40,074 nucleotides of DNA from a virus. The DNA lies in IMG/VR virus record IMGVR_UViG_3300048996_000039, positions 1 to 40,074 of that record; one strand, written 5' to 3'. Position 1 is the stretch's first letter. Every line of letters begins with the position of its first letter. The notes beneath the pieces were generated by a model. It did not search any database and had not been told where the DNA came from. It was given only the letters and a program-made list of their open reading frames with translations. A program made the position numbers and the translations under genes. Shown here in pieces: positions 22,576-40,074 of this stretch.

Positions 22576-22842
22576 TCAGGCGGCCGCTTTCTGCTCGGGC
22601 TCGCCGGCCTGCATGCGCAGGACGTCCCAAGCAACGTCGGGGCGGAGGTCTTCGCACAGGACCACGCCACCGGTGGCGCGCTCAATCAGGGGGCAGTACT
22701 CGGCCGGGACGCGGTTGCGAGCCCACGACTGCACGGTCTGGTACCGCTCGACACCCAGCCGCTCAGCTGCTCGGACAGGGCCGCCCAGCAGTCGAATCGC
22801 TCTGGCGACTGGTGATTCGTTGGCGTCGACGTGTTGCTCCAT
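22576..22842 (-). CDS. Cro-like repressor (YdaS/Cro-type HTH)
   Basis: This 88-residue protein is the first gene of the minus early operon. Residues 10-55 form a Cro/YdaS-type helix-turn-helix (ARAIRLLGGPVRAAERLGV, VQSWARNRVPAEYCPLIE), then DLRPDVAWDVLR, a common ending in this family. TAGGA lies 7 nt before ATG 22842. The start is only ~20 nt from the predicted start of the promoter that overlaps operator 22854-22886, so it would be made first and could counter the lysogenic repressor, as lambda Cro does. The role is from family and position. Confidence 0.75.
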   Translation of the reverse strand: MEQHVDANESPVARAIRLLGGPVRAAERLGVERYQTVQSWARNRVPAEYCPLIERATGGVVLCEDLRPDVAWDVLRMQAGEPEQKAAA

Positions 22843-22853
22843 GACTGTCCTAT

Positions 22854-22886
22854 GCAAGATTCTCTAGTAATACTAGATGATCTTGC
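22854..22886. promoter_or_regulatory. Operator-like 33-bp palindrome (OR-type)
   Basis: The site is a large imperfect palindrome centred on 22870: outer arms gcaagat / atcttgc and a perfect inner CTAGTAATACTAG. It lies between the divergent cro-like gene and the HTH gene at 22924. A second copy at 24629-24661 matches 26 of 33 bases in the same orientation. Two copies flanking the immunity genes strongly suggest binding by a phage repressor. Confidence 0.7.
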
Positions 22887-22923: not shown

Positions 22924-23409
22924 ATGGACATTCACGAGCAGATCAAGGCCGGCCGAGAGCGCCGGAAGTGGTCTATGGAGCGGCTCGCCAAAGAGATCAG
23001 TGACGCGGAACAGCTGACGAAGCCGCTGGCGTGGCAGACGGTTCAACAGTGGGAAAACGGTACTTCCGCGCCGAAGCGCACCCGCATGGCGCTAGTCCGT
23101 CGTCTCTTGCGTTTGGATGAGCCGACCGCTCAAGAACCCAAAGGCGCTTTGTTTGAGAAGGTCATGCCGGAGGAGTGGGAGATGCTGCAGAACTACCGCA
23201 AGCTTCTGGATAAGGACCGCAAGGCGGTGGACGCGGAGATCGCCGCAAAGGCGGAGGAGCGCCAGGCAGAGGCGGACGAGCTTTTCGCTCGATACGGTGT
23301 CGCCAAAGCGGCGGCCCGAACTAATGCAAGGGGCAGACGGCCAGCAACTACCACTGCAGATCCGGCCGACCCTGCCCATAAACAGCGTCCACTTCCGGGC
23401 ATCAAGTGA
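22924..23409 (+). CDS. HTH repressor candidate of the immunity region
   Basis: The 161-residue protein starts at ATG 22924, where the fold begins. Residues 3-62 are an XRE-type helix-turn-helix (DIHEQIKAGRERRKWSMERL, WQTVQQWENGTSAPKRTRM). The rest is a charged helix (LDKDRKAVDAEIAAKAEERQ) and a disordered basic tail. There is no LexA/CI peptidase domain, so RecA-driven self-cleavage is not expected. No ribosome site precedes the start, so it may be translated from a leaderless message, as lambda cI is from PRM. It is transcribed away from the operator, together with the small membrane genes, and is the best candidate for the lysogenic repressor. Confidence 0.65.
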   Translation: MDIHEQIKAGRERRKWSMERLAKEISDAEQLTKPLAWQTVQQWENGTSAPKRTRMALVRRLLRLDEPTAQEPKGALFEKVMPEEWEMLQNYRKLLDKDRKAVDAEIAAKAEERQAEADELFARYGVAKAAARTNARGRRPATTTADPADPAHKQRPLPGIK

Positions 23410-23561
23410 GCGCTTGGCTGATCGCGCTGGTCGGCGTGATCTATGCCTGGGTCGCCGCCGATCTGGCGTGGCGTGGCAGCTGGTGGCAGGCCCTGATCTT
23501 CTTCGGCTACGCCGTGAGCAACATCGGGCTATGGAAGCTGGCGACCGAGGGAATGAAGTGA
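23406..23561 (+). CDS. Small two-helix membrane protein
   Basis: The 51-residue frame starts at GTG 23406, overlapping the repressor stop as GTGA. It has two hydrophobic segments (AWLIALVGVIYAWVAADLAW and WWQALIFFGYAVSNIGLW) joined by an RGSW turn, and ends in a short hydrophilic tail. Cotranscribed with the repressor in the immunity region, it would be made in lysogens. Small inner-membrane proteins in this place are often involved in superinfection exclusion. No named family is recognised. Confidence 0.6.
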   Translation: MSAWLIALVGVIYAWVAADLAWRGSWWQALIFFGYAVSNIGLWKLATEGMK

Positions 23562-23568
23562 TTCGCAC

Positions 23569-23862
23569 ATGACCAAGCTGATCGTGGCCGGCCTCTGCGC
23601 GGCAGTTTTCTACTGGCTTGAGCCGGACAATCAGCGTGTCGCCGTAATCCTCGCGGCTATTGCGCTTGGCGTGTGGTCGATCGAAGAGGCGATTAGAAAA
23701 CTAGCGGGCGCCGCGGGCCATGATATTGATGAAATCAAGGCGCGGCTCAAGGCGCTAGAGGAGCACCCGCTGAACACTGCTTACATCGCCAAGGGCGTCG
23801 AGGGGCTTGTGGATGAACACAACGCGCGCAATCGTGGTCCTGATCGTGACCACGCTCCTTAG
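23569..23862 (+). CDS. Membrane protein with cytoplasmic coiled coil
   Basis: This 97-residue protein has two N-terminal membrane segments (KLIVAGLCAAVFYWLE and RVAVILAAIALGVWSIEEAI) and a hydrophilic helical C-terminus (DEIKARLKALEEHPLN) of coiled-coil type. It follows the 51-residue membrane protein after 7 bases and overlaps the secreted HNH gene by 50 bases. It probably acts at the inner membrane together with its neighbours. No family recognised. Confidence 0.6.
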   Translation: MTKLIVAGLCAAVFYWLEPDNQRVAVILAAIALGVWSIEEAIRKLAGAAGHDIDEIKARLKALEEHPLNTAYIAKGVEGLVDEHNARNRGPDRDHAP

Positions 23863-24133
23863 CGCATCTCAAGCAGGGGTGCGTTCTGCTGCCGAGCGCC
23901 TGGCCTTCATCCGCGAGAGCCCATGCCCTGCCACTGGCCTGCGCCTCGGCGCGTGTCCAGGCTATGTCGTCGACCACGTGCACCCGCTCTGCGCTGGCGG
24001 GCCTGACCACCGCAGAAACATGCAGTGGCAGGCGGTTGAAGAGGCGAAGGTGAAGGACCGGTGGGAGCGGAAGCTGTGCAGGCGCTCTACAGCCCCCCGG
24101 GCCAGTCGGCCTCGGCCGCTTCCCTCTCCCTGA
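23813..24133 (+). CDS. Secreted HNH endonuclease
   Basis: From ATG 23813 the protein has 106 residues with a typical N-terminal signal segment (NTTRAIVVLIVTTLLSASQA). The HNH site follows: CPATG and GACPGYVVDHVHPLCAGG (Cys38, Cys48, Asp54-His55), Asn69 in RRNMQWQAV and the EEAKVKDRWE helix. This is the ‘CPxTGxxxGACPGYxVDHxxPL’ pattern of small proteobacterial HNH nucleases with export signals. Acting in the periplasm, it could cut incoming DNA. It sits at the end of the repressor transcript and converges with the minus-strand HTH gene, overlapping it by 47 bases. Confidence 0.75.
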   Translation: MNTTRAIVVLIVTTLLSASQAGVRSAAERLAFIRESPCPATGLRLGACPGYVVDHVHPLCAGGPDHRRNMQWQAVEEAKVKDRWERKLCRRSTAPRASRPRPLPSP

Positions 24134-24398
24134 ATATCTCGTGCAGGGATGCTGAGCCTATGGGCTCGGTCTTGATCCCCAGCGCAAGCCAGTCGAGCGA
24201 CTCGCCATAGAGCATCGCCAACTGGCGCAGCACCGACACAGTGGGCTCTGCGCCCTGCTCCAACCTGGACACAGCCTGTCGGGACTTCGGAGGCCGAAGC
24301 GCTCTCCCGACTTCGCGCTGATTCATTTTGTTGGCCAACCGTGCCGCCTTCAACCTGGCGCCAGTCTCGCGCTGAAGCGCTTTTTCCAGTCGATCCAC
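24087..24398 (-). CDS. XRE-family HTH regulator, second immunity-region repressor candidate
   Basis: I chose GTG 24398, which has AAGG 6 nt upstream and places the helix-turn-helix at residues ~13-73 of 103 (GARLKAARLANKMNQREVG, KSRQAVSRLEQGAEPTVSV, LAMLYGESLDWLALG). The same frame stays open upstream to ATG 24590 (and TTG 24632), but that part has low GC at third positions and no recognisable domain, so I treat it as leader. The protein lacks a peptidase domain. It is transcribed away from the second operator at 24629-24661. It may be the repressor or an antirepressor-type partner of the gene at 22924. Confidence 0.6.
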   Translation of the reverse strand: MDRLEKALQRETGARLKAARLANKMNQREVGRALRPPKSRQAVSRLEQGAEPTVSVLRQLAMLYGESLDWLALGIKTEPIGSASLHEIFREREAAEADWPGGL

Positions 24399-24628
24399 AT
24401 CAGACCTTAGTTCTTTTTCATTCGCCAGCCGGCGGGTGGAAAACAGGCCAAAAAGGCCAATGCTCGCGTGGTGATACAGAGGGTAAACGCGCACGCAAAG
24501 CCGCCCTGTCGGACGCTGACAGGGAATTCCCTTCCATTCGGGTGAGGTGATCACCACTAATTCACTATCAGCCCCACTGTCGACCCGCATTACGTATCCG
24601 CATAGGTAGTTGCTGCCAGGCTGCTGAT
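24399..24628. promoter_or_regulatory. AT-richer leader of the second regulator
   Basis: This 230-bp stretch is less GC-rich than its surroundings and holds a perfect 10-bp palindrome GGTGATCACC (24546-24555). It probably contains the promoter and leader of the minus-strand HTH gene. An open frame crosses it (start ATG 24590), so an N-terminal extension of that gene cannot be excluded. Confidence 0.35.
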
Positions 24629-24661
24629 GCAAGTTTCTCTTGTATTACTAGTTTCTCTTGT
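24629..24661. promoter_or_regulatory. Operator-like 33-bp site (OL-type), second copy
   Basis: This site matches 22854-22886 at 26 of 33 bases in the same orientation, including gcaag and the core tactag. It also holds a 12-base direct repeat agtttctcttgt (24632-24643 and 24650-24661, 18-bp period). It lies between the minus HTH gene and the first gene of the plus-strand early operon, 43 bp before its ATG. It is the natural place for control of the second divergent operon. Confidence 0.65.
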
Positions 24662-34077: not shown

Positions 34078-34415
34078 CCGCCAAGCAAGCCGCGCCCCTG
34101 CTGGGCATCTCTCCCCGGTCGGTGTACGCTTTGGCCCAATCCGGCAAGCTGGCCTGCCACCGCATGGGCGTCGGCGATGCTGCCGTCCGCTTTGAACTTG
34201 CCGACATAGAGGCTTACAAGCAGTCATGCCGATTACCCGCCACCACTCGGGAGCCCCGCTCTTCCAGTTTGACCGCGTCATCGCCGGTCAGCGAATCCGG
34301 GCTAACAGAGTACTTCCGAAAGGCTGGACGCGAGCCCAGGCGCAAGCCTACGACCAGCGCGAAACAGCGCGGCTCTACGCCCTTGCAACTGGTGGCGAGC
34401 ACGCAGAACCCCTGA
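34071..34415 (+). CDS. Excisionase-like HTH protein
   Basis: This 114-residue protein begins LTAKQAAPLLGISPRSVYAL, AQSGKLACHRMGVGD, VRFELADIEAYK, a MerR/excisionase-type winged HTH (HTH_17) occupying residues 1-48. The remaining 65 residues are a Ser/Pro/Arg-rich tail that overlaps the integrase gene by 190 bases in another frame. Directly ahead of an integrase, it likely directs excision by bending attachment-site DNA. The HTH core alone would have the usual length, so the tail may be non-functional read-through of the integrase 5' end. Confidence 0.7.
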   Translation: MLTAKQAAPLLGISPRSVYALAQSGKLACHRMGVGDAAVRFELADIEAYKQSCRLPATTREPRSSSLTASSPVSESGLTEYFRKAGREPRRKPTTSAKQRGSTPLQLVASTQNP

Positions 34416-35242
34416 TCGACGATGCCGTGCTGGTGTACCTGACCGACCACGCACCCTCCCTGAAGAACTACAGGGACATCGAGGGCGCGCTCGCCATCAT
34501 CCAGCCGGAGTACATGGGTAAGCCGTTCTCAGCGCTGCCTGACATCGCGCAGGAGTACGCGAAAACCGCTGTCAAGGAGGGGTTGAGCCTCGCCACCGCC
34601 AAGAACCGCCTGGCCTACCTGCGAGCCGCCTGCCGCTGGGCATGGAAGAACCGGAATGGGTACGGGAAGCACGACCCGGCCGAGCGGATGGTGCTGCCCA
34701 AGGTAAAAAACGCCCGCCATGTCTACCTGTCACGCGCGCAAGCTGTGGCCGTGTTCAGGGCAATGGGGCTGTCGTGGTCCCGTGATGCCGCGCGGGTGGC
34801 GTTTTATACGGGTTGGAGAATTGGGGAAGTCCTGGCGGCTCAGGCCGTAGAGACCCCTGCCGGCTGGGTGCTGACCATCCCCGACACGAAGAACGGGGAG
34901 CCGCGGATTGTTCCGGTCCATCACCGAATCGTCCACTTGGTGCGTGACCACTGGCCGCCGCAGGTCCATAAATGCACCGTGAGCGACAAGGCGAAGGCCG
35001 CGCTCAAGGAATGCGGGTTGGGACATGCCCGCCTGCACGATCTGAGGCACTCTGCCGCCTCTGAAATGATAAATGCCGGCATCGACCTGTACACGGTCGG
35101 CGGGGTGCTTGGGCACAAGAGCGCCGTGAGCACTGCCCGCTACGCCCATTTGGCTACCGAACGGCTGCGGTTGGCGGTGGGCAAGATCGGTGGCCGTGCT
35201 GCCAAAATCTCCCAACCTGGGCCGGAGGCGAAAGCAGCATGA
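34226..35242 (+). CDS. int: Tyrosine-type integrase
   Basis: This 338-residue site-specific recombinase has an N-terminal arm/core-binding part (residues ~1-160: SLATAKNRLAYLRAACRWAW) and the catalytic domain with Arg198 (TGWRIGEVL), Lys222, His271-x2-Arg274 (LHDLRHSAASEM), His297 (LGHKSAVST) and the nucleophile Tyr306 (ARYAHLA). All six conserved residues are present. The ATG at 34226 lies inside the excisionase frame, and no strong ribosome site is visible, so translation may be coupled. Its stop is 16 bp from a tRNA-Lys segment, the expected attachment site. Confidence 0.9.
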   Translation: MPITRHHSGAPLFQFDRVIAGQRIRANRVLPKGWTRAQAQAYDQRETARLYALATGGEHAEPLIDDAVLVYLTDHAPSLKNYRDIEGALAIIQPEYMGKPFSALPDIAQEYAKTAVKEGLSLATAKNRLAYLRAACRWAWKNRNGYGKHDPAERMVLPKVKNARHVYLSRAQAVAVFRAMGLSWSRDAARVAFYTGWRIGEVLAAQAVETPAGWVLTIPDTKNGEPRIVPVHHRIVHLVRDHWPPQVHKCTVSDKAKAALKECGLGHARLHDLRHSAASEMINAGIDLYTVGGVLGHKSAVSTARYAHLATERLRLAVGKIGGRAAKISQPGPEAKAA

Positions 35243-38846: not shown

Positions 38847-40074
38847 TTACGGCAGCTTCGCCTTAAGCGCCCGCACTTCGGCGGAGAGCTCCTGCACCGC
38901 CTTGATCAGCGGCCCCACCAGTTCGTCGTAGCCGATCGAGAGCACGTCGCTGCCGCCCGCTATGCTGTGATCCTGGTAGCCTCCGAAGTCAACGCCCATA
39001 GCGTCGGCGGCTGCCTTCAGTTCTTGGGCGATCAGCCCATGGTGGTAGCGGCCCCGCTTCTTGCTGCCGTCCTTCTCGCCCCAGCCGTAGTCCTCGCGGT
39101 AGTCCCAACGGAAGTCGACCGGGCGCAACGCCGTGATGAAGTCCAGGCCGAGCGCAGTGTCGCGCACGTCCGCCTTGTCTCGTGCGTCCGAGCGGTTCTG
39201 CACAGCACCGTAGGCGTAGGTCGTGGTCGAAGCATCACCGAGCTGGACCTGATTGCTCCCCGTGACAGCGGTGTTCGCGCCGAGGAAAGTGCAGTTCGAG
39301 TTGGTGGTGTTGGTCGCGCCCGCTGCGCGCCCTATGGCGGTGTTGGTGGAGACCGTGTTGTCGCGTAGCGCCTCGTAACCAACTGCTGTATTGAAGCTCT
39401 GGTTGGCGACGCCGTTCATAGAAGACGCGCCCACGCTGGTGTTGCCAGAGCCAGTACCCGGTGCGAACATTGCGGATTTTCCAACCGCAGTGTTATTGCT
39501 TCCGCTGCTGGCATTGATGCCTGCATCCATGCCCACGCCGGTATTGTTGCTGCCGGTCGCGTTGGTGAACGCCTCGTAGCCAACGGCCGTGTTGTTCAGT
39601 CCAGTGACGTTGTACTGCAGCGCCGTGACGCCAACGCCGGTGTTGCCGCTGCCGGAATCGTTGGCGAAGCACGCCTTGAAGCCGAGGCCGGTGTTGTTGC
39701 TGCCGGTCGTGTTTGTGACCACCGCACTGACACCCACGCCGGTGTTTCCGCTTCCCGAGGTGTTGAACTCCAGAGCGACGACACCCACGGCCGTGTTGTT
39801 GGAGCCGTCAGCGTTGAAACGCAGCGTCGACCGGCCCAGCGCTGTATTGTTGTATCCAACCGTGTTGGCATTGAGCGATTCGTAGCCGATGGCCAGCAGA
39901 CTGTAGCCAGTCGTGTTTGCCGTAAGTGAGCTCTTTCCCCACCGCTGGTTCTGCGCGACGGAGCTGGCGTTTCCATCGTTGGGGCCGTTGCCGATAGGAA
40001 AGCCGTTGATGAAACTGTCGGCACCGGTTTCAATGCCACCGTTTGCAAGCAGGCCCAGGTGCCCGACTTTCGCC
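38847..40074 (-). CDS. Tail fibre, C-terminal part with S74 chaperone domain (runs off window end)
   Basis: The frame is open for about 408 codons from the window edge. It carries many NTAVG/NTGVG-type repeats (NNTGVGMDAG, NNTAVGKSAM, NTSVGASSM, NTAVGYEAL) that form a beta-roll stalk. At ~residue 290 of the visible part lies the S74 domain: NRSDARDKADVRDT with the conserved Ser-Asp, GLDFITALRPVDFRWD, HHGLIAQEL and DELVGPLIKAVQELSAE. This intramolecular chaperone helps the trimer fold and then cuts itself off. The N-terminal part is probably the gene at 1-421, if the molecule is circular. Confidence 0.85.
   Translation of the reverse strand, partial: AKVGHLGLLANGGIETGADSFINGFPIGNGPNDGNASSVAQNQRWGKSSLTANTTGYSLLAIGYESLNANTVGYNNTALGRSTLRFNADGSNNTAVGVVALEFNTSGSGNTGVGVSAVVTNTTGSNNTGLGFKACFANDSGSGNTGVGVTALQYNVTGLNNTAVGYEAFTNATGSNNTGVGMDAGINASSGSNNTAVGKSAMFAPGTGSGNTSVGASSMNGVANQSFNTAVGYEALRDNTVSTNTAIGRAAGATNTTNSNCTFLGANTAVTGSNQVQLGDASTTTYAYGAVQNRSDARDKADVRDTALGLDFITALRPVDFRWDYREDYGWGEKDGSKKRGRYHHGLIAQELKAAADAMGVDFGGYQDHSIAGGSDVLSIGYDELVGPLIKAVQELSAEVRALKAKLP

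What the first reader, a model, noticed from the sequence alone, without database searches (positions are those of the whole stretch)
22924..24133. Immunity-region cassette: repressor, two small membrane proteins and a secreted HNH nuclease
Seen: four plus-strand genes directly follow the operator between the two divergent early operons. They encode an HTH protein, a two-helix membrane protein, a membrane protein with a cytoplasmic coiled coil, and an HNH nuclease with an N-terminal export signal. Known: genes cotranscribed with the repressor in temperate phages often exclude other phages (lambda rex, P22 sieA-type genes, HK97 gp15). Inference: this may be a superinfection-exclusion set in which a periplasmic nuclease cuts incoming DNA and the membrane proteins localise or restrain it. 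I do not know of a described system with this make-up.
Basis: partly seen in the sequence, partly recalled or inferred. Interest (0 to 1): 0.65.

Follow-up and report, generated by a model that had tools for sequence, protein, structure and literature searches.

The report
Exported prophage nuclease beside the repressor
A dormant bacterial virus carries, right behind the gene that keeps it dormant, a small DNA-cutting enzyme built for export to the cell envelope plus two small membrane proteins; the same kind of set turns up in many unrelated dormant viruses and probably protects the host cell against incoming DNA, most likely that of rival viruses.

Summary
The four genes are real. They lie between two related operators (22852-22886; 24627-24660, 28/34 identical), the place of cI-rexAB in lambda, in a phage with an integrase. 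The HTH gene is a RacR-like repressor: 58 of 60 relatives lie divergent from a YdaS-like gene. The HNH protein (ATG 23813) has a signal peptide, covarying cysteines and an HNH fold; its third His is replaced by an Ala/Asp arrangement that covaries across the family.

The exact trio is not conserved: the 97-aa protein has no relatives found, and the 51-aa protein belongs to a phage family that sits elsewhere. The architecture recurs, though. In 41 of 117 distinct loci the exported HNH follows a repressor on the same strand, and 35 of 50 intervening genes encode envelope proteins (90 of 709 elsewhere). Partners are mostly unrelated to each other. In two loci the partner belongs to PF14373, the superinfection-immunity family of T4 Imm, one of them between repressor and HNH.

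Best reading: a lysogen-expressed exclusion module; small membrane proteins stall DNA entry and an exported nuclease destroys the DNA. Activity, expression and phenotype are untested. Blocking natural transformation, as the Campylobacter prophage Dns does, is the main rival.

The parts
22576..22842 (-). YdaS/Cro-like regulator, first gene of the leftward early operon, divergent from the repressor
   Evidence: PF15943 YdaS_toxin E 8.9e-19, P22_Cro E 6.6e-5 (alternative TTG start at 22857)
22852..22886 (.). Operator region 1 (oR-like), inverted repeat GCAAGATTCTCTAGTA/TACTAGATGATCTTGC
   Evidence: matches operator 2 at 28 of 34 bases, maximum in 60 shuffles 25
22924..23409 (+). RacR-like HTH repressor, 161 aa, no peptidase domain
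   Evidence: HTH_3 21.5 bits (cut-off 23), PHROG 3 transcriptional repressor 6e-5; 58 of 60 relatives L151-L210 lie divergent from a YdaS-like gene
23406..23561 (+). 51-aa two-TM protein, GTG start overlapping the repressor stop; member of a phage small-membrane-protein family
   Evidence: coding score 22.5
23569..23862 (+). 97-aa protein, two short hydrophobic N-terminal stretches then a charged helical region; no relatives found
23813..24133 (+). Exported HNH nuclease, 106 aa; signal peptide about 1-21 (SQA|G), D54 H55 N69 D82, Cys 38/48/60/89
24087..24632 (-). Convergent HTH regulator overlapping the HNH 3' end; true start uncertain
   Evidence: PF01381 HTH_3 E 3.7e-11
24627..24660 (.). Operator region 2 (oL-like) in front of the rightward early operon
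34226..35242 (+). Tyrosine integrase; shows a temperate phage (context)
   Evidence: PF00589 E 5.4e-16

Best explanation
This is a lysogen-expressed exclusion cassette in the position of lambda rex. The RacR-like repressor gene is followed by genes for two small inner-membrane proteins and an exported HNH nuclease. In the lysogen, the membrane proteins would sit where incoming DNA must cross the inner membrane and slow or divert it. The disulphide-stabilised HNH nuclease, secreted by Sec into the periplasm, would cut the stranded DNA. Shown from sequence: gene order, operators, export signal, fold, covarying active-site and cysteine positions, and recurrence of the architecture with interchangeable membrane partners. 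Inferred: expression in the lysogen, nuclease activity, disulphide bonding, cooperation of the proteins, and the exclusion phenotype.
For: Operators bracket the cassette. The repressor belongs to the RacR/YdaS type. HNH relatives follow a same-strand repressor in 41 of 117 distinct loci, 29 of 64 viral; Fisher p 1e-7 against other genes of the same loci. In a second, partly overlapping sample (351 genomes of one bacterial family plus a few others) 9 of 28 HNH loci have a repressor upstream, all 9 among the 15 best-scoring ones fetched as L282-L296. Genes between repressor and HNH: 35 of 50 envelope, against 90 of 709 others and 16 of 57 in repressor operons not selected for HNH. Partners are mostly unrelated to each other. 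Partners of L020 and L094/L041 are PF14373 superinfection immunity proteins (E 2e-14, 3e-17), the only two above cut-off in 50 HNH-bearing viral records and both next to the HNH. In L329 a two-TM zinc-ribbon relative sits between repressor and HNH.
Against: The window's own membrane proteins match neither PF14373 nor any known exclusion protein. About two thirds of HNH loci show no repressor upstream by the models used, and their contexts are diverse. Secreted HNH relatives also exist in chromosomal settings. Nine of 44 repressor-linked loci have no gene between repressor and HNH, so partners are not always required. The TM/signal classification and gene calls are home-made and the loci are not fully independent. 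No expression or phenotype data exist.
Confidence: 0.5

Rival explanations
1. The exported HNH acts alone as a DNase against naked DNA. It blocks natural transformation of the lysogen, which protects the prophage from being replaced by recombination, and the membrane genes are separate morons.
For: Direct precedent: Campylobacter prophage dns genes encode an exported DNase linked to loss of transformation, and strains with broken dns transform (PMC10893306). Nine of 44 repressor-linked loci have no gene between repressor and HNH. The exact trio is not conserved.
Against: Envelope genes between repressor and HNH are strongly enriched, and in two loci the neighbour belongs to a phage superinfection-immunity family. 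The host of this phage, and whether it is competent, are unknown.
Confidence: 0.22
2. A general lysogenic-conversion moron: the nuclease degrades extracellular DNA for nutrients or biofilm remodelling and happens to sit in the repressor operon because that operon is expressed in the lysogen.
For: The family occurs in many contexts and also in bacterial chromosomes with export signals; repressor operons are a general slot for lysogen-expressed genes, 16 of 57 of which code for envelope proteins even without selection for HNH.
Against: Enrichment of membrane partners specifically with HNH (35/50 against 16/57, p 2e-5) and the PF14373 partners are not predicted by it.
Confidence: 0.18
3. The HNH is an ordinary phage DNA-metabolism, packaging or homing nuclease, and the hydrophobic N-terminus has nothing to do with export.
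For: HNH proteins in phages are commonly packaging or homing enzymes (general knowledge); one relative (MW202512) lies between portal and capsid genes near an annotated homing endonuclease.
Against: Signal-like N-terminus in 103 of 113 relatives and AXA-like site in 101 of 110; covarying loop and tail cysteines; position behind the repressor, away from the terminase.
Confidence: 0.05

Closest known systems
T4 Imm and the PF14373 superinfection immunity family
   Same: Small two-TM inner-membrane protein acting on DNA entry; PF14373 members are the direct partner of the exported HNH in L020 and L094/L041.
   Different: The window's 51-aa and 97-aa proteins do not match PF14373. T4 carries no nuclease of its own in this role; from general knowledge, the host's periplasmic endonuclease I degrades excluded DNA.
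Lambda rexAB and P22 sieA, prophage-expressed exclusion
   Same: Position between the operators behind the repressor (rex) and small inner-membrane proteins (SieA, PMC10883804).
   Different: No Pfam match to Rex or Sie proteins; an exported nuclease is part of the set.
Campylobacter prophage Dns DNases
   Same: Prophage-encoded exported DNase affecting incoming DNA (PMC10893306).
   Different: No Pfam match to another DNase family; here the gene sits in the repressor operon with membrane partners.
RacR-YdaS immunity region of the Rac prophage
   Same: Repressor divergent from a YdaS-like gene (PMC5700373).
   Different: The genes behind the repressor differ even among close relatives of this repressor.
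HNH nucleases (McrA, Cas8f-HNH, pyocin and colicin DNases)
   Same: beta-beta-alpha core with DH and N motifs.
   Different: Exported, cysteine-rich, third His replaced by an Ala/Asp arrangement; no Pfam, NCBIfam or PADLOC family matched above cut-off.

Membership tests
Prophage superinfection-exclusion system | Gene positioned for expression in the lysogen (repressor operon) | tested here: met
   Cassette follows the repressor between two operators; expression itself not measured
Prophage superinfection-exclusion system | Reduces infection by other phages | not testable with these tools
   Needs plating and injection assays
HNH (beta-beta-alpha metal) nuclease | beta-beta-alpha fold with DH and N motifs | tested here: met
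   D54 H55 N69 conserved; E51-55, E70-74, H75-93 in a model of pLDDT 89.5; HNH proteins lead the structural matches, though no PDB match reaches E 0.001
HNH (beta-beta-alpha metal) nuclease | Third His of the HNH triad | tested here: not met
   Ala78; in the family non-His at this position goes with Asp four residues later (97 of 107) and His with Thr (29 of 30), suggesting a ligand swap
HNH (beta-beta-alpha metal) nuclease | Nuclease activity | not testable with these tools
   Needs purified protein
Sec-exported protein | Signal peptide with signal peptidase I site | tested here: met
   Hydrophobic core then SQA before G22; family-wide 103/113 and 101/110, by hydropathy and motif only
PF14373 Imm_superinfect (T4 Imm) | Match of the window's membrane proteins to PF14373 | tested here: not met
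   No match of the 51-aa or 97-aa protein
Lambda RexA/RexB | Sequence match to RexA or RexB | tested here: not met
   No such Pfam or PHROGs match; only the position is shared
Campylobacter prophage Dns | Sequence homology to Dns | tested here: inconclusive
   No DNase family in the Pfam result; Dns sequences were not compared directly
RacR-YdaS immunity region | HTH repressor gene divergent from a YdaS gene | tested here: met
   Window; 58 of 60 relatives

The most novel reading that the evidence does not exclude
A widespread, undescribed class of prophage exclusion module: an exported, disulphide-stabilised HNH nuclease co-encoded with the repressor and paired with interchangeable, mostly unrelated small membrane proteins (T4-Imm-like in some phages, orphan types as in this window). 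The membrane protein stalls incoming DNA in the periplasm and the nuclease destroys it there.
Probability: 0.4. Interest if true: 0.8.

Novelty: new variant of a known kind. Interest (0 to 1): 0.6.

Why it matters
Exclusion proteins such as Imm, SieA and HK97 gp15 block DNA entry, but what destroys the stranded DNA is usually left to host enzymes. A prophage module that carries both a membrane block and its own periplasmic nuclease would be a self-contained entry barrier. Its recurrence with swapped partners would give a way to find new entry-blocking membrane proteins by looking upstream of the nuclease gene. If the rival reading is right, it would be a common means by which prophages stop transformation.

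Tried and rejected
Conserved trio: rejected; the 97-aa protein has no relatives in viral contigs by peptide patterns, phage records, or 369 genomes of one class, and the 51-aa relatives examined lie elsewhere.

51-aa or 97-aa protein as distant T4-Imm members: profile comparison gave no support (probability about 1% or less).

97-aa protein as relative of the 64- and 66-aa two-TM partners in L289 and L291: 28-31% identity over the hydrophobic part, not significant; a scan for more of that type found none.

Apparent HNH beside PF14373 in L319: a chance match between hydrophobic segments.

Phylogeny of the HNH: too few columns for resolution (7 of 132 inner branches well supported); 30 context changes on the tree, not relied on.

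Sigma-70 promoter scan: nothing above chance.

Host assignment: the terminase search gave only distant phages (Pseudanabaena phage Pam1, 62%), so the host stays unknown.

No literature describing such a system was found in the held library.

Full report
Observation. The window is a 40,074-base virus record, GC 64%, with a tyrosine integrase, RusA and a terminase, so a temperate phage. An inverted-repeat operator precedes them and a related operator lies 1.77 kb away at 24627-24660 in front of the rightward early genes; the two match at 28 of 34 bases while 60 shuffles never exceeded 25. A YdaS/Cro-like gene diverges on the left and a second HTH gene converges on the HNH from the right. The layout resembles lambda's cI-rex segment between its operators.

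The repressor. The HTH protein scores just under Pfam's HTH_3 cut-off. Sixty relatives in viral contigs were fetched; in 58 of them a YdaS-like gene lies divergent, directly upstream (L186 and L190 gave no such match). This is the RacR-YdaS type of immunity region (PMC5700373 and PMC5700377, abstracts). What follows the repressor differs even among close relatives: a secreted 165-aa protein in L151 (70% identity), an 87-aa hydrophobic protein in L152 (65%), and a lipoprotein, a secreted protein and an HNH in L153, which is the same contig as L010.

The nuclease. The HNH protein matches no Pfam, NCBIfam or PADLOC model and only weakly PHROG 333. An AlphaFold2 model (pLDDT 89.5, 60 sequences) shows a signal-like helix 3-20, a helix 26-35 and the beta-beta-alpha core; sequence-profile and structural matches are led by HNH nucleases, though no PDB structural match reaches E 0.001. 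In 138 distinct loci the N-terminus is signal-like in 103 of 113 parseable cases and an AXA-like site precedes the conserved Arg in 101 of 110. Two covariations stand out (tests). The third His is present with Thr four residues on (29 of 30) or replaced by a small residue with Asp four residues on (97 of 107); the window is of the second kind, and in the model both positions lie on one helix (75-93), one turn apart, so a metal-ligand swap is likely (inference). A cysteine in the loop after the DH motif and one in the C-terminal tail occur together (118), are both absent (15), or disagree (4), as a disulphide would (inference).

Context of the nuclease. Repressor-like genes were found with profile models built here from seed repressors of these loci. 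Of 117 distinct loci with at least 1.5 kb upstream, 41 have a same-strand repressor-like gene ending within 1.3 kb upstream, 29 of 64 among viral contigs, against 191 of 1334 other genes in the same loci (p 1e-7). The repressors are of different kinds: S24-type cI in L002 and L003, a short repressor in L004, whose contig carries a large transposase-like gene by eye. In a second sample (351 genomes of the family of one prophage host, plus a few from its class) 9 of 28 HNH loci have a repressor upstream, all among the 15 best-scoring family loci fetched as L282-L296. The remaining contexts are diverse: late activators, integrases, recombinases, DNA ligase, chromosomal genes.

Partners. Between repressor and HNH, 35 of 50 genes encode predicted membrane or secreted proteins, against 90 of 709 other genes in these loci (p 1e-18) and 16 of 57 in repressor operons not selected for HNH (p 2e-5). 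These partners are mostly unrelated to each other; only a few small similarity groups appear among 50. Many are small two-TM proteins directly abutting the HNH. Two of them, in L020 and L094/L041, are above cut-off for PF14373, Superinfection immunity protein, the family to which T4 Imm belongs (general knowledge). In 50 HNH-bearing viral records these are the only PF14373 genes above cut-off, and both sit beside the HNH; in 351 bacterial genomes the family is rare, 9 genes in 8 genomes. In L020 the order is HTH repressor, PF14373 gene, HNH. In L329 a two-TM zinc-ribbon protein lies between repressor and HNH. No repressor was detected in the L094/L041 locus.

The window's own partners. The 51-aa protein belongs to a phage family (29 relatives fetched); those examined lie near portal, terminase, primase or polymerase genes. 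The 97-aa protein has no relative in any search made; its resemblance to the 64/66-aa partners of L289 and L291 (28-31% over the hydrophobic part) is not significant.

Mechanism. The best-supported reading is an exclusion module expressed with the repressor: membrane proteins act at the inner membrane on incoming DNA, and the exported nuclease cuts it in the periplasm. [quoted passage not shown] The main rival is that the nuclease protects the lysogen from transforming DNA, as the Campylobacter prophage Dns does (PMC10893306). Nothing here measures expression, nuclease activity or any phenotype.

Limits. Gene calls, hydropathy-based TM and signal calls and the repressor models are home-made; loci are related to an unknown degree; the control for repressor association uses genes from the same loci; the HNH tree is unresolved; collections differ in coverage. 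The literature search covered open-access papers only and found no description of such a module.

Noticed in passing
window 24087-24632: A minus-strand HTH gene converges on and overlaps the HNH gene; L028 and L049 show a minus-strand HTH gene in the same place.
   Followed up: partly
HNH family, alignment A4: Two active-site classes: His at N+9 with Thr at N+13, or a small residue at N+9 with Asp at N+13, nearly without exceptions.
   Followed up: yes
L331, L333, L335, L336: Small TM proteins ending in a zinc ribbon (CPDCRELVLK.A.VCKHCGCKL) directly follow phage repressors, also without an HNH; possibly a separate family of immunity-region proteins.
   Followed up: partly
L211-L239: The 51-aa family (MSAWLIAL...GYA..N[IV]GL) is a strongly conserved small two-TM protein in phage contigs, beside portal, terminase or polymerase genes where examined.
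   Followed up: partly
L300, L301, L302, L309: Chromosomal relatives of the HNH that lack the DH motif, possibly decayed or repurposed.
   Followed up: no
L104, L108, L113, L125, L127, L129, L134, L148: Relatives in Acidobacteria, Myxococcales and others with long Ser/His/Gly-rich N-termini before the HNH core.
   Followed up: no
window 38847-39788: Minus-strand 313-aa protein with repeats of the NTG/NTAVG type, like a trimeric adhesin head.
   Followed up: no
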